From Aquisphaera giovannonii (GTDB lineage Bacteria; Planctomycetota; Planctomycetia; Isosphaerales; Isosphaeraceae), in contig NZ_CP042997.1 of assembly GCF_008087625.1 (NCBI RefSeq), forward strand, positions 3,286,001 to 3,350,000: a stretch of 64,000 nucleotides of DNA, written 5' to 3'. The notes below the pieces were generated by a model. That model was given only the letters and a program-made list of their open reading frames with translations. It did no database searches and was not told the DNA's origin. Of this stretch, positions 3,668 to 20,712 are shown piece by piece. The position numbers and the translations under genes are program-made. Position 1 is the first letter of the stretch, and every line of letters starts with the position of its first letter.

Positions 3668-5347
3668 ATGATTTCCGACCAGAGCATCGTCCCGACGCTC
3701 CAGATCCTCAGCGGGCCCCACGCCGGCCGGCTCTACAAGATCGACCGGGACGTGCTCGTGATCGGCCGCAACACCGACTGCGACCTGATCCTCGAGCCGA
3801 AGTCCGTCTCGCGACGGCATGCGGCCGTCGTCCGGAGGGAGGCCGACTATGTCATCAAGGACCTCAACAGCACGCGGGGGACGTTCGTCAACGGGGTCCG
3901 GCTCGCCCAGCCCGCGGTCCTGAAGAACGGGAACGTCATCCAGATCGGCGAGCTCCAGCTCTACTTCAAGACGAACGCCGTGCAGATCCAGGACGACTCC
4001 TCGGAGCCTTCCACGGTGTTCGCCACCATGGACATGCCCAGGGAGGACGCCCGCTTCGAGGCCGTCGTCCGGCCGGAGGAGAAGCTGCGGGCCCTGCACC
4101 GCATCGGCCGGTCGCTGGGGGCCACGCTCGAGCTGAGCGCCGTGCTGGACAAGGTCCTGGCGGCGCTGTTCGAGATCTTCCCGGCCGCGGAGCGGGGCTT
4201 CGTCCTGCTGGAGGACCGCACCCGCGGCATCCTCACCCCGGAGGCCATCCGCACGCGATCGGGCACGCCCGGGAATCCGAAGATCAGCAAGTCCATCCTC
4301 CAGCGCGTCCTGAACGACGGCAAGGCGATCCTGAGCAAGGACCTCCCCTCCGAGTTCCCCAACAGCGAGAGCGTCAGCGAGGGGCGGATCACCTCGCTCA
4401 TGTGCGTGCCGCTCCTGGACCACCAGCAGCACCCCATCGGGATCATCCAGATCGACACCCGGACCGGCCGCACCCATTTCGAGCAGGACGACCTGGACCT
4501 CCTCGTGTCGGTCGCCGGCCAGGTGAGCGTGGCGGTCCAGAACGCGCGGCTGCATCACGACCTGATCAAGCAGCACGAGCTCGAGCAGGAGCTCCAGTAC
4601 GCCCGCGAGGTGATGCAGGCCCTCCTCCCCGAGCGGCCCAAGAGCGTCTCGGGCTACGAATTCTGGGACCACTACGAGCCGGCCCGCCACGTGGGGGGCG
4701 ACTATTACGGCTTCATCCCCCTCTATGGCCCCCGCGACGACCGCAAGCAGCCGGCCCGGCGCTGGGCCATCGCGATCGGCGACGTGGTCGGCAAGGGCCT
4801 CCCGGCCGCCCTCCTGACGGCTCGCCTGTCCGCGGAGATCCGGCTGTTCCTGCAGGGCGAGGGGGACCCGGCCTGGGTCGTCTCCCGCCTCAATCAGCAG
4901 CTCATCGAGAACGGCGTGCTGGACATGTACATCACGTTCCTGCTGATCATTCTGGACGTGGAGACCAGCCGGATCCAGCTCGCGAACGCGGGCCATCCCC
5001 ACCCGCTCCTGAGGCGCACCGACGGCCAGGTCGTGGAGCTGGGCAAGGAGGCGTCCGGCCTCCCCCTGGCGATCGCGCCGGACGGCCCTTATGAGTCGTG
5101 GGAGGCCACGCTCCAGCCCGGCGAATCCGTCGTCCTGTTCACCGACGGCGTGACCGACGCCATGGACCAGACCAACGGCCGATTCGGCGACAAGCGCCTC
5201 CGCCAGATCATCGCCGCGACGCCCGGCGGACCGACGCCGATCGGCGAGACCATCCTCCACCAGGTCCAGGAGCACTCGTCGGGCCGCACCCAGTTCGACG
5301 ACATCACCATCGTGACGTTCGGCCGCCGCCCGGCCGCCGGGGGATGA
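3668..5347 (+). CDS. FHA-GAF-SpoIIE (PP2C) serine phosphatase
   Basis: A 559-residue cytoplasmic signalling protein with three domains. Residues ~10-105 are an FHA phosphothreonine-binding domain (GRNTDCDLIL, SVSRRHAAVV, LNSTRGTFVNG). Residues ~135-290 are a GAF sensor domain. Residues ~300-555 are a PP2C/SpoIIE phosphatase (LQYAREVMQALLP, VGGDYYG, GDVVGKGLPAALL, LANAGHPHPLL, VLFTDGVTDAMD, DDITIVTF). Such proteins commonly dephosphorylate STAS anti-sigma antagonists. I prefer the ATG at 3668, which has GGGGA 8 bases upstream; an ATG at 3635 is possible. A STAS protein lies 9 kb away at 14019, but no direct link is shown. Confidence 0.93.
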   Translation: MISDQSIVPTLQILSGPHAGRLYKIDRDVLVIGRNTDCDLILEPKSVSRRHAAVVRREADYVIKDLNSTRGTFVNGVRLAQPAVLKNGNVIQIGELQLYFKTNAVQIQDDSSEPSTVFATMDMPREDARFEAVVRPEEKLRALHRIGRSLGATLELSAVLDKVLAALFEIFPAAERGFVLLEDRTRGILTPEAIRTRSGTPGNPKISKSILQRVLNDGKAILSKDLPSEFPNSESVSEGRITSLMCVPLLDHQQHPIGIIQIDTRTGRTHFEQDDLDLLVSVAGQVSVAVQNARLHHDLIKQHELEQELQYAREVMQALLPERPKSVSGYEFWDHYEPARHVGGDYYGFIPLYGPRDDRKQPARRWAIAIGDVVGKGLPAALLTARLSAEIRLFLQGEGDPAWVVSRLNQQLIENGVLDMYITFLLIILDVETSRIQLANAGHPHPLLRRTDGQVVELGKEASGLPLAIAPDGPYESWEATLQPGESVVLFTDGVTDAMDQTNGRFGDKRLRQIIAATPGGPTPIGETILHQVQEHSSGRTQFDDITIVTFGRRPAAGG

Positions 5348-5359
5348 GATCCCGGCGGG

Positions 5360-6394
5360 TCAATCGTCGCCCCGCGGCCCTTCCAGGCCGAGCTTCTCCC
5401 GGAGGAGCGAGTTCAGACGAGGGTGTGCCTCGTGGTCGCGTACGTCGAGCGCCCGCACGCCGGCCAGCTTCTCGATGAGGGCGGCCCCGGCCGCGGTCTT
5501 CGTCGCCGGGCCGGTGACGAGATCCGGCCGGACGCCGAACGCCGTCATCACGCCGAGCGAGGCGTACGGGTCGCCCACGCTCAGGATCGTCATCCGAACG
5601 CTCGACTCGATCAGCGAGATGGCCGTGTCGCTGTTGTACGCCTCCAGCGGCGATGCGCCGGTCTCGACCACCGCCACGTCGGGGTGCAGCTCGTCGATCC
5701 GCCCGATCAGCGGCATCATGGCGTCGCGATAGGCATCGGCGGGACCGATGGTGGAGGGGAGGCCCGCGTCCACGAAATCGAACGCGTGGTCGGCCCCTTC
5801 GTCCCGCATCGACAGCAGGTCGTTGTACCGCCCCGCCCCGGTCAGCTTGGCCCCGACGACCCGCAGGCCGGCCCGGCTGAGCAGGCGGATGATCACGCGG
5901 GCGGTCGCGGTCTTGCCCGCGGACATCGACGACCCGATGATCAGGACCGTCGGGACGCCCAGCACCCGGAGCGGGCCCCGGATCGCGAAGTCCGCCATCC
6001 GCGTCGGCTCCCCCCCGAGGAAGACGTGACCCCGGTACGACAGGGGCAGCATCGGGGGGAGCAGGGCCGAGCGCATCTGGCAGAGCCCGAGGATGCCCCC
6101 CTCGGTCAGGGCGTGCATCCGCCCGTCGGGTCCGATGGCCTCCCAGTCCCCCGTCCCTTCGAGCGTGGCGAATCGCTTGCCGAGCGCGCCGATCACCAGG
6201 TCGCCGCGATCCGCCTCCACGAGGCGGCCGTTGCAGAGCTCCAGGCGGGTGCTCGCCGGGCCGGGGTCTTCCACCTCCGCCAGGACGTAGTCGCCGGTGC
6301 CCCACCTCGACCGTTCGAGCGGCCGGATGGTGCAGGGAGACTTCGACAGGGGCGAGATTCGCGTGACGGACGCGTGCAGGTGCGGGGTGGCCAT
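5360..6394 (-). CDS. P-loop NTPase of unknown function (MobB/BioD-like fold or DUF1611-like)
   Basis: A 344-residue protein. The N-terminal ~130 residues look like a beta-rich domain (GDYVLAEV, NGRLVEADRGDLVIGALG). A P-loop NTPase domain follows, with a Walker A motif in IIGSSMSAGKTATARVIIRL and downstream VVGAKLTGAGRYNDLLSMRD, VAVVETGASPLEAYNSDTA and GVMTAFGVRPDLVTGPA. The architecture resembles DUF1611 and dethiobiotin-synthetase/MobB-type enzymes, but the Walker A differs from the usual GTDxxxGK pattern, so the family is uncertain. No substrate can be assigned. The ATG at 6394 is divergent from the ABC1 kinase gene with only 108 bases between the two starts. Confidence 0.7.
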   Translation of the reverse strand: MATPHLHASVTRISPLSKSPCTIRPLERSRWGTGDYVLAEVEDPGPASTRLELCNGRLVEADRGDLVIGALGKRFATLEGTGDWEAIGPDGRMHALTEGGILGLCQMRSALLPPMLPLSYRGHVFLGGEPTRMADFAIRGPLRVLGVPTVLIIGSSMSAGKTATARVIIRLLSRAGLRVVGAKLTGAGRYNDLLSMRDEGADHAFDFVDAGLPSTIGPADAYRDAMMPLIGRIDELHPDVAVVETGASPLEAYNSDTAISLIESSVRMTILSVGDPYASLGVMTAFGVRPDLVTGPATKTAAGAALIEKLAGVRALDVRDHEAHPRLNSLLREKLGLEGPRGDD

Positions 6395-6439
6395 GGTCGG
6401 GTCCTCGGCGTGCGATGGCCCGGCGGGCGCATCCGATGC

Positions 6440-6445
6440 TACAAT
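6440..6445 (+). promoter_or_regulatory. Candidate -10 box (TACAAT) for the ABC1 kinase gene
   Basis: TACAAT in the context GCTACAATATGACA, 57 bases before the ATG at 6503. No good -35 box is visible 16-18 bases upstream. Confidence 0.4.
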
Positions 6446-6502
6446 ATGACAGTCGCCCGCCCCCGGCAATCCGGCGACGACCCGGGCGACCCGGAGCCCA
6501 TC

Positions 6503-7999
6503 ATGACGGACTGGGACTGGCTCATCGGCGATGCCGTCATCGGGTCGATCCTGCCCCCCGAATACGCCCGCTACCGGCGGCCGGTCGTCGAGGGCCTCCG
6601 CCACTTCCTGGGCCGCCTGCGGGCCGGCGAGATCGCGGGCATCCTGGCCGGCCAGGCCGCGCTCGGACCGACGGCCACGGCCGAGGAGAGGCTGGTGGAC
6701 CTGGCGGAGCGCTGCCCGGTCCTGCACAAGATCGGCCAGGTGCTGGCCCGGGACCGGAGGCTTTCCGCCGAGCTGAGGCGACACCTCCAGCGGCTGGAGT
6801 CGCTCCCGCCGACGACGCCGGTCGCGGCCATCGAGGCCGTCCTCGCGGCCGAGCTCGGCCGGCTGGATCGCCTGGGAGTGACCCTGGAGCCCCCGGCGCT
6901 CGCGGAGGCGAGCGTGGCGGTGGTGATACCCTTCAGCCGCCACGCCGGGCCCGAGCCTCGCCGCGGCGTCTTCAAGGTCCTCAGGCCGGGCATCGAGGAG
7001 AAGCTGTCTCGCGAGCTCCGCTCGCTGGAGGACATCGGGGCGTTCCTGGATGACTCCTGTGCCCGCTTCGAGATCCCGGCCCTCGAGTACCGCGAGGTCT
7101 TCGAGCAGGTGCGCGAGTCGCTGGTCTCCGAGGTGGACCTTGCCGGCGAGCAGGATCACCTCCGCCGGGCGGCGGCGATCTACGCGGACGCGCCGGACGT
7201 CGTCATACCTCGCGTCCTCCCGTATTGCTCGCCCAGGGTCACGGCCATGGAATGGGTCGACGGGCGGAAGGTGACCGATGCCGGCCCGCTGAGTCCCGGA
7301 CACCGCCGACGCCTGGCCGAGGTCGTCATCGAGTCCCTCATCGCGGCCCCGGCCCTCTCGACGGACGAGGACGCGATTTTCCACGCGGATCCGCATGCGG
7401 GCAATCTGCTCGCGACGCCCGATCGGCGGCTTGCCATCCTCGACTGGAGCCTCGCCGGGCGTCTCGGCCGGGGCGATCGCGCGGCGATGACGCAGGTCAT
7501 GCTCGGCGGCCTCACGCTCGATCCCGGCTCCGTCCGAGACGGCCTCCGCGGCCTCTCGGCGGACGGTCGACTCGACGATCCCGCATTGGCTGCCGTGACC
7601 GCAGAGCATTTGCGGACGCTCCGGCACGGCGGCTTCCCCGGTTTCTCCTGGCTGATGGGGCTGGTCGACGACGCGGTCCTCCGCGCGAGGCTCAGGGCCC
7701 ACTCGGGGCTGATGCTCTTCCGCAAGGTGCTTCACACCCTGGAGGGCGTCGTCGCCGACATCTCCCCGGATGTCCAGGCGGACCGCGTCCTGCCCGCCAT
7801 CTTCCTGCGCCGGTTCGTCTCGGAGATCCCCGCCCGCCTGGCGGCCCCGTACCGGTCCCGCCGCTTCGGGACCGGGCTCTCCAACGAGGACCTGGCGATC
7901 CTCCTCGTGCAGCTCTCCTCGACGCCCGCCCGGGCATTCGTCGAGAATACGCTCGAGCTGCTCGCGGCCCTCGGCGGACGTCCCGAGCCGGGACTGTGA
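6503..7999 (+). CDS. ABC1/UbiB-family atypical kinase
   Basis: A 498-residue member of the ABC1/ADCK/UbiB atypical kinase family. The signature K-x-G-Q stretch appears as LHKIGQVLARD. The nucleotide-binding lysine is in FKVLRPGIEEKL (K158). The catalytic loop is HADPHAGNLL (H294 onward) and the metal-binding segment is LDWSLAGRLGRGD, where DFG is replaced by DWS. Family members act on ubiquinone or other isoprenoid lipid metabolism, probably as ATPases. The ATG at 6503 begins the conserved part; an ATG at 6446 would overlap the candidate -10 box. It stands alone between a divergent NTPase gene and a convergent DUF2934 gene. Confidence 0.88.
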   Translation: MTDWDWLIGDAVIGSILPPEYARYRRPVVEGLRHFLGRLRAGEIAGILAGQAALGPTATAEERLVDLAERCPVLHKIGQVLARDRRLSAELRRHLQRLESLPPTTPVAAIEAVLAAELGRLDRLGVTLEPPALAEASVAVVIPFSRHAGPEPRRGVFKVLRPGIEEKLSRELRSLEDIGAFLDDSCARFEIPALEYREVFEQVRESLVSEVDLAGEQDHLRRAAAIYADAPDVVIPRVLPYCSPRVTAMEWVDGRKVTDAGPLSPGHRRRLAEVVIESLIAAPALSTDEDAIFHADPHAGNLLATPDRRLAILDWSLAGRLGRGDRAAMTQVMLGGLTLDPGSVRDGLRGLSADGRLDDPALAAVTAEHLRTLRHGGFPGFSWLMGLVDDAVLRARLRAHSGLMLFRKVLHTLEGVVADISPDVQADRVLPAIFLRRFVSEIPARLAAPYRSRRFGTGLSNEDLAILLVQLSSTPARAFVENTLELLAALGGRPEPGL

Positions 8000-16557: not shown

Positions 16558-16984
16558 CGGAGCTTAGGTTGCATAGAGGCAGGATGCAAATCCCGGTCCC
16601 CGGGTTCGCGGGGACCGCGAGGTTTCCGCGGCCGTGATGGGATCTCGAGTTGCGAACGGCACTTGCGTCCATGGCGTGCGAAACGCGAATGAGCGAGAAT
16701 GCACAAGAATGAGGCATCACGGATGAGATTTTTACCTTGCCCGTGCAGCCCGATGACATCCCGCATGTCAAGCGGACTCGACCGCGGCCTCACCTGAACA
16801 CGCAATGAGCAGAGGTGACGATTTCACGAGCCACCTTCCTTCACTGCCCAGGGTGATCGGCACCAGAGAGTCATCGTAAGATCGGCCGGCATCCCGACGG
16901 CCCACTCACGACTTGCCTCTCGGTCGCGTAAGATGCTGGCGATCCGCGGTGGAAGTTTCGCGGCCTCCTCTGGACCTGGAAACC
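16558..16984. other. Gene-poor stretch upstream of algH
   Basis: About 430 bases with lower GC than the surroundings and no supportable gene. It includes an A/T-richer part around 16680-16735. No clear promoter pair or repeat was found, although the algH promoter should lie here. Confidence 0.5.
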
Positions 16985-17539
16985 ATGGAATCGCTCAAAG
17001 GGCAACTGCTGATTGCGACTCCGGAGCTGGTGGCCCCGATGTTCGCCCGGTCGGTCATCCTGATGCTGGACCACAACGAGGACGGGGCACTCGGGGTGAT
17101 CCTCAATCAGCCCATCAGCACGACGCTCACCGACCTCGCGGGCAAGGTCTTCGACGAGGAATTCGTCTGGGACAAGCCGCTCAGGCTCGGGGGACCGGTC
17201 TCCGGCTCGCTGCTGGTGCTGCATACGGTGGAGGAGCTGGCGGACCAGGAGACCCTCCCCGGGGTCTACGTCACGCTCGAATCCTCGCAGGTGCAGCGGC
17301 TGATCACGCGGAAGCCGGAGCCCTCGCTCGTGATCGCCAATTACTCGGGCTGGGGGCCGGGGCAGCTCGAGGGCGAGTTCGGTTGGGACTCGTGGCTGAC
17401 GCTCCCCGCGACCCCGGAGCTCGTGTTCTGGGACGACGATCGGGACCTGTGGAAGGTGACCGTGAGCGAGGTCCGCGCGCGGAAGCTGTCCGACTTCCTC
17501 GGGCTGAAAGGCGTGCCGGGAGACCCCTCGCTCAATTGA
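16985..17539 (+). CDS. YqgE/AlgH family protein
   Basis: A 184-residue YqgE/AlgH-type protein. Family marks are the N-terminal LKGQLLIATPEL, FARSVILMLDHNEDGALGVILNQP (two adjacent pieces), LRLGGPVSGSLLVLHTVEEL, LESSQVQRLI, NYSGWGPGQLEGEF and the C-terminal RDLWKVTVSEVRA. AlgH was first seen as a regulator of alginate genes in Pseudomonas, but its biochemical role is unresolved. The ATG at 16985 fits the family N-terminus; an upstream ATG at 16913 would add unrelated residues. It ends 66 bases before the mcsA promoter and is probably a separate transcript. Confidence 0.92.
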   Translation: MESLKGQLLIATPELVAPMFARSVILMLDHNEDGALGVILNQPISTTLTDLAGKVFDEEFVWDKPLRLGGPVSGSLLVLHTVEELADQETLPGVYVTLESSQVQRLITRKPEPSLVIANYSGWGPGQLEGEFGWDSWLTLPATPELVFWDDDRDLWKVTVSEVRARKLSDFLGLKGVPGDPSLN

Positions 17540-17605: not shown

Positions 17606-17633
17606 TTGACAGCCCGGGGGCCTCAATTACAAT
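17606..17633 (+). promoter_or_regulatory. Strong sigma-70-type promoter of the mcsA-mcsA'-mcsB operon
   Basis: TTGACA (17606-17611) and TACAAT (17628-17633) are separated by 16 bases, the best promoter match in the window. Transcription would start near 17640, about 120 bases before the first ATG. Confidence 0.75.
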
Positions 17634-17637
17634 TGAG
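17622..17637. promoter_or_regulatory. Candidate operator: perfect inverted repeat over the -10 box
   Basis: CTCAATT-AC-AATTGAG is a perfect 7-bp inverted repeat with a 2-base spacer, and it covers the -10 hexamer of the mcsA promoter. Such placement suits a repressor dimer. The repressor is unknown; it does not resemble the tandem heptad of CtsR. Confidence 0.6.
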
Positions 17638-17761
17638 TCTGTCACTTGCCTCTCCGGCGAGAGCGATCGGCCGGCGACACGGCGGCCGCCCCTTCGGATG
17701 AGGGAATTCGGGGAGCGGCACCCCGTCGCAACGACCTTGCGCGGGCGGGCGGAGCGAAATC

Positions 17762-18280
17762 ATGAAATGCCAGAAGTGCTCCAAGCCGGCCACCTTCCAC
17801 ATCACGGACATCGTGGAGAAGGGGAAGCACCGCGAATACCACTTCTGCGACGAGCACGCCCGCCAGCACCTGACCGCCCCTGAGGAGACGCCCGAATCGG
17901 CGCCCATGGGCGAGCTCGCCAAGAAGCTCGCCAGCGGCTCGTCGGCGTCGGTCTCGTTCCGGGAGGCCTCGCCCGCGGACAAGCAGGTCTGCCCGGTCTG
18001 CCAGATCACCTTCCTGGAGTTCCGCAAGTCGGGCCGCCTCGGCTGCCCGTATGATTACGAGGTCTTCCGCGACGAATTGATGCCCCTGCTCGAGAGCATC
18101 CACGGGGAGACCCGCCACTCCGGGAAGGTCCCCCGGCGGGCGCCGCGGAACACGCAGCAGCAGACGACCTTGATCCAGCTCCGCAACGAGCTCAAGCGGG
18201 CCGTCGCGGCCGAGGATTACGAGGAGGCCGCGCGCCTCCGCGATCGCATCAAGTCGATCGAGCAGGAGCAGGGGCGTTGA
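17762..18280 (+). CDS. mcsA: McsA-like zinc protein with UVR motif (activator of the protein-arginine kinase), copy 1
   Basis: A 172-residue McsA-type protein. It begins with a treble-clef-like cysteine set (MKCQKCSKPATFHI then HFCDEHARQH). A second zinc motif follows, VCPVCQITFLEFRKSGRLGC with PYDYEVF directly after it. The protein ends in a UVR helix pair (LRNELKRAVAAEDYEEAARL). In Bacillus and Staphylococcus McsA binds and activates McsB, which phosphorylates arginines in proteins to mark them for ClpCP. It is the first gene of an mcsA-mcsA'-mcsB operon behind a strong promoter with an inverted-repeat operator. The acidic, serine-rich linker (~40-75) is longer than I would expect. Confidence 0.9.
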   Translation: MKCQKCSKPATFHITDIVEKGKHREYHFCDEHARQHLTAPEETPESAPMGELAKKLASGSSASVSFREASPADKQVCPVCQITFLEFRKSGRLGCPYDYEVFRDELMPLLESIHGETRHSGKVPRRAPRNTQQQTTLIQLRNELKRAVAAEDYEEAARLRDRIKSIEQEQGR

Positions 18281-18352
18281 GCGTAGAATGAGAGGAGACG
18301 AGGAGAGAACGTCTCCGCGCACCGCCCTTCCGTCCGCCGAGGTCGTCCCGAA

Positions 18353-18838
18353 ATGATCTGCCAGCGTTGCAAGAATGAGGCCTCGGTCCACCTCACCGAG
18401 AGGGTGGGCGGGAAGCGGAAGGAGATCCACCTCTGCTCGGCCTGCGCCAAGAAGTCCGGCCTGGGCCTCCCCGAATCGCCCCCGAATTTGGCCCTCGACG
18501 CCGTCGTGCAGGACCTGATCCTGACGCACGTCGGCGAGCTAGTCGGCGAGCTGGCGGAGCTGGCCTGCCCGGAATGCGGGATCAAGTACATGGAGTTCCG
18601 CGCCGGCGGCCGCCTGGGATGCCCGCAGGATTACCGGATCTTCGGCCGCGGGCTGCTCCCGGTCATCCAGCGGGTCCACGGGGCCACGCGGCACGTCGGC
18701 AAGGTGGCCCGCCAGCGCCCGGGCGCCATCCACCGCCTCCGCCTCCGCTCGCAACTCCGCGACGCCATCGCGCGTGAGGACTACGAGGAGGCCGCACGCC
18801 TCAGGGATCAGCTCCGCCTCAAGGATATCCACGCATGA
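18353..18838 (+). CDS. McsA-like zinc protein with UVR motif, copy 2
   Basis: A 161-residue paralogue of the preceding gene with the same layout. It has CQRCKNEASVHLTERVGG and LCSACAKK at the N-terminus, CPECGIKYMEFRAGGRLGC followed by PQDYRIF in the middle, and a C-terminal UVR motif (LRSQLRDAIAREDYEEAARL). Its stop codon overlaps the mcsB start (ATGA at 18835-18838), so it is translationally coupled to the kinase and may be its main partner. Two adjacent McsA-like proteins suggest a tandem duplication with divergence, and perhaps two alternative activators or adaptors. Confidence 0.9.
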   Translation: MICQRCKNEASVHLTERVGGKRKEIHLCSACAKKSGLGLPESPPNLALDAVVQDLILTHVGELVGELAELACPECGIKYMEFRAGGRLGCPQDYRIFGRGLLPVIQRVHGATRHVGKVARQRPGAIHRLRLRSQLRDAIAREDYEEAARLRDQLRLKDIHA

Positions 18839-19899
18839 CTCTGGACGACCTGACGAAGACTTCGGGCGAATGGCTGCGCGGCAACGGCCCGGAGAGCGAC
18901 ATCGTGATGTGCTCGCGCATCCGGCTGGCCCGCAACCTCGCCGAATTCCCCTTCACCAACCGCAGCAGCCGCGCGGAGAAGGGCGAGATCGAGTCCCACT
19001 TCAAGTCGGCGCTGGCCGCCAGCCGCCTGGAGATGGACTACTTCGACGTCAACGTCCTGCCCCCGCTCGACCGCCAGTTCCTGGTCGAGCGGCAGATCAT
19101 CTCCAGCGAGCTCGCCAAGGGCGAGGGCCCGCGCGGCGTCGCGATCAGCCCGCACGAGAACGCGGCGATCATGGTCAACGAGGAGGACCACCTCCGCATC
19201 CAGTACATGCTCTCGGGATTCCGGCTCCACGAGGTGTGGGACGAGATCAACAACATCGACGACCAGCTCGAGGAGAACCTCGCCTTCGCGTACAACCCGT
19301 CGCTCGGCTACCTCACCGCGTGCCCGACCAACGTGGGCACCGGGATCCGGGTCGGCGTGATGCTCCACCTCCCCGGCCTCGTCCAGGACAAGTCGATCGA
19401 CAAGGTCTTCCGCGCGCTCCAGAAGATCAACCTCGCCGTCCGCGGCCTCTACGGCGAGGGGAGCCAGGCCTTCGGCGACTTCTACCAGATCTCCAACCAG
19501 CAGACCCTGGGCAAGAGCGAGCCGGAGCTGATCCGGATCCTCACCGACGTCGTCCCGCAGGTCCTCCTCTACGAGCGGCAGGCCCGCCAGAGGCTCGTCA
19601 CCGAGCGGCGGCAGCACCTGCACGACCAGGTGAGCCGGGCCTACGGCGTCCTCAAGACCGCGCAGACGATCTCCAGCGAGGAGACGATGCTCCTCCTCTC
19701 CAGCGTCCGCATGGGCATCAACCTCGGCCTCATCGACGACGTGTCCATCGCCACGGTCAACGAGCTGTTCATCCAGACGCAGCCCGCGTTCCTCCAGAAG
19801 ATCCGCGGCTCGGAGCTCGACGTGGAGGACCGGAACGTGGCGCGGGCCACCTACCTCCGCAGCCGACTGGCCAACGGGCGGATGGCGCCCGAGCCCTGA
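18835..19899 (+). CDS. mcsB: Protein-arginine kinase McsB (ATP:guanido phosphotransferase family)
   Basis: A 354-residue guanidino kinase that phosphorylates arginine side chains in proteins. It has the family N-terminus (IVMCSRIRLARNLAEFPF) and NEEDHLRIQYMLSGFRL. The nucleotide and active-site segment is LGYLTACPTNVGTGIRVGVM, with catalytic Cys at residue 163; the C-terminal SSEETMLLLSSVRMGINLGL is also present. In Firmicutes the product pArg tags proteins for ClpC-ClpP and inactivates the repressor CtsR. Here no ctsR or clpC lies in the window. The start overlaps the stop of the second mcsA-like gene. A J-domain protein gene follows 90 bases downstream. Confidence 0.95.
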   Translation: MTLDDLTKTSGEWLRGNGPESDIVMCSRIRLARNLAEFPFTNRSSRAEKGEIESHFKSALAASRLEMDYFDVNVLPPLDRQFLVERQIISSELAKGEGPRGVAISPHENAAIMVNEEDHLRIQYMLSGFRLHEVWDEINNIDDQLEENLAFAYNPSLGYLTACPTNVGTGIRVGVMLHLPGLVQDKSIDKVFRALQKINLAVRGLYGEGSQAFGDFYQISNQQTLGKSEPELIRILTDVVPQVLLYERQARQRLVTERRQHLHDQVSRAYGVLKTAQTISSEETMLLLSSVRMGINLGLIDDVSIATVNELFIQTQPAFLQKIRGSELDVEDRNVARATYLRSRLANGRMAPEP

Positions 19900-19989: not shown

Positions 19990-20712
19990 TTGGCCACAAT
20001 CAGCTTCGAGATCGACCCGAAGTCCGTCCTCGGCGTGGCGGAGGACGCGTCGCTCGATCAGATCCGCGACGCCTACCGGCGCAAGTCCAAGATCCTCCAC
20101 CCCGACGCCGGCGGCGAGGAGTGGGCCTTCCGGATCCTCGCCCAGTCCTACGAGATCCTCAGCACGGCGCGCGTCCGCAGGGCCGCGGCCGCCGAGCCCC
20201 CACACCCGGCCGCCGCGACGGCGGCGTCCCACGACGCCCGCAGGGACCGAAAGGCCGGCCCCAGCTCCGAGACCGTGAGGGGCGGGTTCCACGACGCCGA
20301 CGTGCCCGCCGACCGGATCGTGGCGGTGGAGCACCTCTGCGTGCGCTACCTGTGGGACGACGCGGCCTACCTCTTCCTCGCCCGGAAGCAGTCGGACGAG
20401 GAGCGATTCCTGAGCTGCAGCCTGAACATCCGATGGCCCGACGAGAACCGCTCCGCCTTCGCGATGGGAGACGAGAAGGTCGCGTCCATCCTGGCGACCC
20501 TCCGCGAGACGTTCGCCGTCATGGCCGCCTCGCCGGACGTGGTCACGTCCCACGTGAGTGACGACCACGACGAGTTCGCCGGATGGCTCACCTACCGGAA
20601 CTTCGACCGATCCTGGGCCGCACTCAAGGCCCTGCACGCCGAGCTGAGGCGCAAGGGGCTGGGGCTCCGCCAGTGGTCGCGGGACCTCTTCATCCCCAAG
20701 AACTGGAAGTGA
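19990..20712 (+). CDS. J-domain (DnaJ-like) protein with an unknown C-terminal domain
   Basis: A 240-residue protein. Residues ~10-60 form a J domain (SVLGVAEDASLDQIRDAYRR, KSKILHPDAGGEEWAFRIL) with the HPD motif that stimulates Hsp70 ATPase. An Ala/Pro linker leads to a ~130-residue C-terminal domain (IVAVEHLCVRYLWDDAAYLF, SCSLNIRWPDENRSAF) that I do not recognise. The start appears to be TTG at 19990; no ATG or GTG in frame precedes the conserved J domain, and no strong ribosome-binding site is seen. Its position behind mcsB suggests a protein quality-control function, by inference. Confidence 0.85.
   Translation: MATISFEIDPKSVLGVAEDASLDQIRDAYRRKSKILHPDAGGEEWAFRILAQSYEILSTARVRRAAAAEPPHPAAATAASHDARRDRKAGPSSETVRGGFHDADVPADRIVAVEHLCVRYLWDDAAYLFLARKQSDEERFLSCSLNIRWPDENRSAFAMGDEKVASILATLRETFAVMAASPDVVTSHVSDDHDEFAGWLTYRNFDRSWAALKALHAELRRKGLGLRQWSRDLFIPKNWK

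What the first reader, a model, noticed from the sequence alone, without database searches (positions are those of the whole stretch)
17606..19899. Protein-arginine phosphorylation operon (two McsA-like genes + McsB) in a planctomycete
McsB keeps the active-site Cys and sits in a tight operon with two zinc/UVR McsA paralogues. Known arginine-phosphorylation biology is from Firmicutes, with CtsR and ClpC next door. Neither is here, so targets, reader and degradation partner could differ. The second McsA is translationally coupled to the kinase.
Basis: partly seen in the sequence, partly recalled or inferred. Interest (0 to 1): 0.72.

Follow-up and report, generated by a model that had tools for sequence, protein, structure and literature searches.

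The report
Planctomycete protein-arginine kinase operon
This planctomycete carries what looks like a complete system for tagging proteins with phosphate on arginine and sending them for destruction: a rewired version of a system studied mainly in Gram-positive bacteria, not yet tested in the laboratory here.

Summary
At 17606-19899 lie a sigma-70-type promoter, two McsA-like genes and mcsB; the second mcsA overlaps mcsB by ATGA. McsB keeps its catalytic residues.

The same genome encodes a ClpC with both phosphoarginine-pocket glutamates and a phosphatase with the YwlE-type Thr P-loop, fused behind a TsaC-like domain. In 28 non-Firmicute loci clpC lies downstream of mcsB. No CtsR was found in 294 phylum genomes; the McsB catalytic family was found in 386 of 393.

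New points: (1) the McsA pair comes from an old duplication; A2, coupled to mcsB, keeps the ancestral position, and A1 is the copy shared with other Planctomycetia; (2) Asp replaces the last Cys of the McsA zinc finger that contacts McsB; (3) the arginine that locks the Bacillus McsB octamer is Lys in 131 of 140 rows, but some Firmicutes lack it too; (4) the eraser is a fusion in at least 138 of 195 genomes.

A new variant of a known system; no biochemistry was done.

The parts
17606..17633 (+). sigma-70-type promoter TTGACA-N16-TACAAT, 11 of 12 consensus matches
   Evidence: 1 found, mean 0.1 in shuffles; form matched in 27 of 29 Isosphaeraceae upstream regions
17762..18280 (+). mcsA1 (172 aa): zinc finger 1 with ligands C,C,C,H, zinc finger 2 with C,C,C,D, UVR motif
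   Evidence: belongs to the clade that also holds the single McsA of other Planctomycetia
18053..18055 (+). codon of Asp98, in the place of the fourth Cys ligand of McsA1 zinc finger 2
18353..18838 (+). mcsA2 (161 aa): zinc finger 1 CCCC, zinc finger 2 CCCD, UVR motif; the copy that overlaps mcsB
   Evidence: 4-base overlap in 31 of 31 Isosphaeraceae loci (28 distinct by McsB core)
18629..18631 (+). codon of Asp93, in the place of the fourth Cys ligand of McsA2 zinc finger 2
18835..19899 (+). mcsB, protein-arginine kinase (354 aa)
19321..19323 (+). codon of catalytic Cys163 (B. subtilis Cys167)
19402..19404 (+). codon of Lys190, at the position of B. subtilis Arg194, the phospho-switch of the McsB octamer
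   Evidence: role of Arg194 from PMC8370763 section 6
19834..19836 (+). codon of Asn334, at the position of B. subtilis Asp338 of the pArg receptor site (Arg333, Arg337 and Ser281 are kept)
19990..20712 (+). J-domain protein (240 aa, HPD kept) directly downstream; possibly in the same transcript
   Evidence: DnaJ, E 2e-10; homologue just downstream of mcsB in 18 fetched loci, all Isosphaeraceae by my labels

Best explanation
The operon encodes the writer of a protein-arginine-phosphorylation system. McsB, activated through the second zinc finger of a McsA, phosphorylates arginines on aberrant or regulated proteins. ClpC, encoded 1.1 Mb away (G000:C1:2173327), binds the pArg through its two N-terminal pockets and feeds the protein to ClpP. 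A YwlE-type phosphatase, here the C-terminal half of a TsaC-like fusion protein (G000:C1:3952705), removes the mark. No CtsR was found, so induction of the operon by phosphorylating CtsR, as in Bacillus, should not occur; the promoter is sigma-70-like. McsB should not form the pArg194-locked octamer of B. subtilis, because that residue is Lys, so its oligomeric control must differ. I propose that McsA1, the copy shared across Planctomycetia, is the main activator and that the faster-evolving McsA2 tunes it or serves a subset of substrates. Shown by sequence: gene order, catalytic and pocket residues, presence of the parts, grouping of the McsA copies. Inferred: kinase activity, ClpC delivery (ClpP itself was not looked for), phosphatase specificity, division of labour between the McsAs.
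For: Family and structure matches. Residues R29, E121, C167, R207 and E212 (B. subtilis numbers) are kept in 60 of 60 newly sampled phylum loci and in every one of the first 80 rows that is not gapped there. ClpC in the same genome with the E32 and E106 equivalents and a UVR middle domain; both glutamates in 30 of 30 phylum ClpC loci read, the best-scoring ones; ClpC N-domain match in 118 of 118 genomes, 117 of them at E 2e-52 or better and one (G105) only at 2.7e-14. clpC downstream of mcsB on the same strand in 28 non-Firmicute loci (27 distinct), six of them with two McsAs upstream: L063, L064, L066, L067, L073, L076. Thr at P-loop position 5 in 35 of 35 phosphatase loci read, 30 of them the best-scoring; that Thr directs selectivity to pArg (PMC8001253, passages). 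PF00217 in 386 of 393 genomes.
Against: No activity, pArg or interaction has been measured. Both McsAs score below NCBIfam's McsA cut-off, and McsB passes only one of five arginine-kinase models' cut-offs. D338 is Asn, so the allosteric pArg pocket is altered. clpC is not linked here nor in 111 other loci of 145. The phosphatase is not linked to the operon, and the seven genomes without a PF00217 match all have a LMW-PTP, three of them with a match over both halves of the fusion (G104, G105, G186), so the two are not strictly co-inherited. 18 of 22 genomes chosen from families f43, f64 and f69 have a PF00217 kinase but no LMW-PTP. Four of the 60 sampled loci (L141, L163, L186, L187) show no McsA within nearly 3 kb upstream of mcsB. 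Asp at the fourth zinc-ligand place could weaken that finger.
Confidence: 0.8

Rival explanations
1. McsB is active, but pArg serves a non-degradative purpose or a reader other than ClpC, because the operon is detached from clpC and CtsR is missing.
For: No clpC within the sampled flank here or in 111 other loci; CtsR not found in 294 of 294 genomes.
Against: ClpC with both pArg-pocket glutamates in the genome and in 30 of 30 loci read; clpC next to mcsB in other lineages of the phylum; Chlamydia has the same detached layout and a ClpC that degrades pArg-casein (PMC10128030, passages).
Confidence: 0.12
2. McsA1 and McsA2 are not alternative McsB activators: one of them mainly serves another partner (for example ClpC) and only shares the operon.
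For: A1 and A2 differ strongly within a genome (mean identity 5% in the linker, 53% in zinc finger 2) and are conserved to different degrees; their zinc finger 1 ligands differ (CCCH against CCCC).
Against: Both keep the second zinc finger, which contacts McsB in S. aureus (PMC12467219, passages), and both stay upstream of mcsB in the Isosphaeraceae and Gemmatales-type loci.
Confidence: 0.3
3. The kinase is a small-molecule (phosphagen or free arginine) kinase rather than a protein kinase.
For: The catalytic domain is homologous to arginine and creatine kinases.
Against: It aligns to McsB up to about residue 345, but to phosphagen kinases only up to about residue 250; the pArg-receptor arginines are kept; McsA genes and, in relatives, clpC are its neighbours.
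Confidence: 0.04

Closest known systems
ctsR-mcsA-mcsB-clpC system of Bacillus subtilis with YwlE
   Same: writer, activator, reader and eraser families; catalytic and ClpC-pocket residues; mcsA overlapping mcsB
   Different: no CtsR found; clpC elsewhere; two McsAs; zinc finger 2 CCCD instead of CCCC; octamer switch Arg194 is Lys and Asp338 is Asn; eraser fused to a TsaC-like domain
mcsAB operon and ClpC of Chlamydia trachomatis
   Same: non-Firmicute, mcsAB apart from clpC, ClpC that degrades pArg-casein (PMC10128030, passages)
   Different: two McsAs here; chlamydial zinc ligands and octamer residues were not examined
McsA-McsB complex of Staphylococcus aureus (8GQD)
   Same: zinc finger 2 of McsA, which contacts a McsB loop close to the catalytic Cys (PMC12467219, passages), aligns to both McsAs here
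   Different: fourth zinc ligand is Asp here; assembly state unknown
YwlE / PtpB arginine phosphatases
   Same: CxGNTCRSP P-loop with Thr at position 5
   Different: C-terminal domain of a TsaC/Sua5-LMW-PTP fusion; in the window's genome the TsaC half lacks the K-x-R motif of TsaC (motif recalled), while a separate strong Sua5/YrdC gene exists

Membership tests
McsB protein-arginine kinase | phosphagen-kinase catalytic core with R29, E121, C167, R207, E212 (B. subtilis numbers) | tested here: met
McsB protein-arginine kinase | McsB-specific C-terminal domain with pArg receptor residues R337, R341 and S285 | tested here: met
   R333, R337 and S281 in the window protein
McsB protein-arginine kinase | NCBIfam protein-arginine-kinase equivalog cut-offs | tested here: inconclusive
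   PRK01059.1-4 passed (440 of 385); NF053707 (376 of 500) and three other PRK01059 models not passed
McsB protein-arginine kinase | phosphorylates protein arginine | not testable with these tools
   needs biochemistry
Bacillus-type pArg-locked McsB octamer | Arg194 as phospho-tether and Asp338 in the receptor pocket | tested here: not met
   K190 and N334 here; 131 of 140 non-Firmicute rows have K at 194, 7 R, 2 Q; three of five fetched Firmicutes lack R as well
McsA kinase activator | two four-Cys zinc fingers | tested here: not met
   A1 CCCH + CCCD, A2 CCCC + CCCD; Firmicutes all Cys in 5 of 5
McsA kinase activator | UVR motif and nearly full-length similarity to B. subtilis McsA (8wtb) | tested here: met
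McsA kinase activator | NCBIfam NF053706 cut-off | tested here: not met
   125 and 109 bits against 210; hence 'McsA-like'
McsA kinase activator | activates McsB | not testable with these tools
   needs biochemistry
ClpC as pArg reader | E32 and E106 of the N-domain pockets, UVR-bearing middle domain | tested here: met
   sites from PMC12583610 (passages)
YwlE-type arginine phosphatase | LMW-PTP family with Thr at P-loop position 5 | tested here: met
YwlE-type arginine phosphatase | pArg-specific activity | not testable with these tools
   needs biochemistry
ctsR-mcsA-mcsB-clpC operon | CtsR present | tested here: not met
   PF05848 not found in the own genome nor in 294 phylum genomes; caution: the control rang only in L. 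lactis, not in B. subtilis, although B. subtilis has ctsR

The most novel reading that the evidence does not exclude
Arginine phosphorylation is a core, ancient protein-quality system of the whole phylum Planctomycetota, run without CtsR and without the Bacillus octamer switch. In Isosphaerales and Gemmatales the kinase is controlled by a pair of duplicated McsAs (a McsA1/McsA2 exchange in place of the pArg194 lock), and the mark is erased by a phosphatase born as a fusion with the tRNA-t6A enzyme TsaC, whose TsaC half has since decayed into a regulatory domain in some lineages.
Probability: 0.25. Interest if true: 0.75.

Novelty: new variant of a known kind. Interest (0 to 1): 0.52.

Why it matters
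Phosphoarginine tagging has been studied in a few Bacilli and only lately elsewhere. Here the kinase's catalytic family is found in 386 of 393 genomes of another phylum, a ClpC N-domain match in 118 of 118 and CtsR in none of 294, so the quality-control role could be studied apart from the CtsR stress circuit. The natural Lys at the octamer switch tests how general the gated-chamber model is. The paired McsAs are a natural experiment on which copy activates the kinase.

Tried and rejected
A regulatory palindrome at the promoter (CTCAATTACAATTGAG) was dropped: among 29 Isosphaeraceae loci it is shared, in shorter form, only with the closest relative L010. CtsR boxes and CIRCE were sought in the window with up to 3 mismatches and not found. 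A separate McsA duplication inside Isosphaerales was rejected (p-AU 0.0036); whether the Isosphaeraceae and Gemmatales-type A2 form one clade stays open (p-AU 0.36). Structure prediction of the downstream J-protein gave a mean pLDDT of 63.6 and no fold match at E <= 0.001. Control oddity: the 14-genome control found PF00217 in none, and neither CtsR nor Clp_N in B. subtilis, although a B. subtilis record has the whole operon; I gave that control no weight.

Limits of the counts. 'Isosphaeraceae', 'Gemmatales-type' and 'Planctomycetia' are my labels for the loci, from record titles, family codes, kinship, tree position and similarity; some titles look mis-binned (L068 is titled Porticoccaceae but lies inside the planctomycete tree). 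The 140 non-Firmicute McsB rows hold 134 distinct cores; on these position 194 is K in 125, R in 7, Q in 2. The 31 Isosphaeraceae loci are 28 distinct and the 28 clpC-linked loci 27 distinct. In one search the mcsB start codon that gave a gap closest to -4 was taken in every group, which favours overlaps in all groups alike. In one search, two Isosphaeraceae A1 rows (L026, L027) show a gap at the first Cys because my script began the protein too late; the DNA has both Cys. For the tree, 17 Isosphaeraceae loci, L063-L065, L076, rows under 130 aa and identical rows were left out; one search used 74 of those 134 rows. The listing was cut; counts come from later calls on the stored files. One search lists 150 rows and says that more exist, so 138 is a lower bound; 9 of the 138 have stop codons inside the aligned stretch.
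Full report
What is there. The window lies in a 10.5 Mb genome whose McsB is 97% identical to that of Aquisphaera insulae, a planctomycete. Three genes on the + strand follow a TTGACA-N16-TACAAT promoter at 17606-17633: mcsA1 (17762-18280), mcsA2 (18353-18838) and mcsB (18835-19899), the last two overlapping by ATGA. The promoter form recurs upstream of mcsA1 in 27 of 29 Isosphaeraceae loci. Pfam finds UVR in both small proteins and the ATP:guanido phosphotransferase catalytic domain in the third. The closest solved structures are McsB and McsA of Bacilli. NCBIfam scores are mixed: McsB passes one equivalog cut-off and misses four, and both McsAs stay under the McsA cut-off.

Is McsB intact? 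By alignment to B. subtilis McsB, the catalytic residues R29, E121, C167, R207 and E212 are all present (the Cys is C163 here); in 60 newly sampled phylum loci each is invariant. It is the only PF00217 match in the genome.

Are reader and eraser present? Yes. Six PF02861 matches mark four Clp-type reading frames; the one at G000:C1:2173327 is a ClpC of 844 aa with a UVR middle domain, and its alignment to B. subtilis ClpC keeps Glu at positions 32 and 106, the crucial determinants of the two pArg pockets (PMC12583610, passages). In 30 phylum loci, the best-scoring, both glutamates are kept in 30 (29 matched, the last read). Two LMW-PTP genes exist. One (L092) is a fusion of a Sua5/YrdC/TsaC-like domain and a LMW-PTP with P-loop CTGNTCRSP; the other (L093) joins a region that looks like membrane segments (my reading; Pfam finds only LMWPc) to a LMW-PTP with CGGNTSRSP. 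Thr at this P-loop position directs YwlE to pArg and was tested in PtpB (PMC8001253, passages). CtsR was found neither in this genome nor in 294 phylum genomes; the control of these two searches did not ring in B. subtilis, which has ctsR, so it is weak.

How widespread? PF00217 is found in 386 of 393 Planctomycetota genomes drawn at 90% completeness or more. A ClpC N-domain match occurs in 118 of 118, one of them weak. Of 195 genomes searched with the fusion, 193 have some match, and at least 138 have one match spanning both domains, 9 of these with stops inside the aligned stretch. In all 35 phosphatase loci read, 30 of them the best-scoring, the P-loop residue is Thr; in one of the 35 (L238) the TsaC half did not align. 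In the window's genome and in the family coded f2 the TsaC half mostly lacks the recalled K-x-R motif, while in family f3 and most genomes outside the class that were read it is largely kept. A separate strong Sua5/YrdC match exists in the window's genome. So the phosphatase P-loop stays constant while the fused domain decays in some lineages. Against strict coupling with the kinase: all seven genomes without a PF00217 match have a LMW-PTP, and 18 of 22 genomes chosen from families f43, f64 and f69, each with a PF00217 match, have no LMW-PTP.

Is ClpC the partner? Gene order says yes. Of 145 loci with mcsB, clpC lies downstream on the same strand in 33: 5 of 5 Firmicute references and 28 others, the Omnitrophota locus L084 included; 112 are unlinked, 101 of them with at least 1.5 kb of sequence downstream. 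Six of the linked loci have two McsAs upstream: L063, L064, L066, L067, L073, L076. The detached layout of the window is thus most simply a local loss. Chlamydia has the same detachment and a ClpC that degrades pArg-casein (PMC10128030, passages).

What are the two McsAs? Two McsAs precede mcsB in 31 of 31 Isosphaeraceae loci with readable upstream sequence and in 14 of 14 Gemmatales-type loci; the other loci with any have one. Five of the 60 sampled phylum loci show none: L141, L163, L186, L187, and L171 at a contig end. In the tree of 134 McsAs, A1 of both groups lies with the single McsAs of other Planctomycetia (100/97), and A2 of both groups lies outside that clade. A separate duplication in Isosphaerales is rejected (p-AU 0.0036); one clade of the A2s is neither shown nor rejected (p-AU 0.36). 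The last McsA overlaps or touches mcsB (gap of at most 3 bases) in 31 of 31 Isosphaeraceae, 12 of 14 Gemmatales-type, 26 of 33 other single-McsA loci and 4 of 5 Firmicutes, but in only 10 of 54 Planctomycetia with a single McsA. The simplest reading: A2 keeps the ancestral coupled place, A1 arose as an upstream duplicate in an ancestor of Planctomycetia, and A2 was later lost in the orders that have a single copy. Among Isosphaeraceae, A1 is more conserved than A2 in both zinc fingers and the UVR motif, A2 more in the linker.

Molecular changes. The fourth ligand of zinc finger 2 is Asp in 31 of 31 A1 and 31 of 31 A2 of Isosphaeraceae, in 13 of 13 A1 and 13 of 14 A2 of Gemmatales type (one Glu), in 44 of 54 single Planctomycetia McsAs and 26 of 32 of other classes, against Cys in 5 of 5 Firmicutes and in the Omnitrophota locus. 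This finger contacts a McsB loop that positions the catalytic Cys in S. aureus (PMC12467219, passages). In B. subtilis McsB, pArg194 binds R337, R341, S285 and D338 of a neighbour and locks the octamer (PMC8370763, section 6; other passages). In 140 non-Firmicute rows position 194 is K in 131, R in 7, Q in 2; position 338 is N in 107 and D in 24 (distinct rows). R337, R341 and S285 are kept in the window. Residue 194 is not Arg in three of five fetched Firmicutes either, so the octamer switch is not general even there and its loss is not a planctomycete peculiarity.

Literature. McsB with 'arginine kinase' and Planctomycetes returned one paper, where the terms occur in the reference list and a table legend. 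'Protein arginine kinase', planctomycet- and ClpC, at least two of three, gave 39 papers; in the ten listed, planctomycet- does not occur. Sua5 with YwlE and Sua5 with LMW tyrosine phosphatase and fusion returned none. McsA, McsB and 'paralog' gave 16 papers, of which I saw ten in the listing. Only open-licence papers were searched, so absence there proves little.

Verdict. A real, probably working protein-arginine-phosphorylation system of a known kind with new variant features. The most interesting parts are its reach across the phylum without CtsR, the old McsA pair and the fused eraser.

Noticed in passing
L092 (G000:C1:3947000-3962000), 5706-7070: TsaC/Sua5-like domain fused to a YwlE-type LMW-PTP, widespread in the phylum; the TsaC half looks degenerate here while a separate strong Sua5/YrdC gene exists.
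   Followed up: partly
L093 (G000:C1:9482000-9494000), 5218-6708, - strand: Second LMW-PTP with P-loop CGGNTSRSP at the C-terminus of a protein whose first 340 or so residues look like membrane segments.
   Followed up: no
genomes of families f43, f64, f69: 18 of 22 chosen genomes show no LMW-PTP although each has a PF00217 kinase; four of the 18 are single-contig assemblies (G066, G135, G148, G153). Kinase without the known eraser.
   Followed up: partly
window 19990-20712: J-domain protein with a conserved C-terminal domain of unknown fold follows mcsB in many Isosphaeraceae loci.
   Followed up: partly
L097:853-1626 and L100:685-1608 (own genome): Two similar-looking proteins of unknown function that end in a UVR motif.
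   Followed up: no
window 16913-17539: AlgH-like (DUF179) gene directly upstream of the operon.
   Followed up: no
control genomes of the genome search: The B. subtilis control rings for neither CtsR, Clp_N nor PF00217, as if its ctsR-mcsA-mcsB-clpC stretch were missing or withheld.
   Followed up: no
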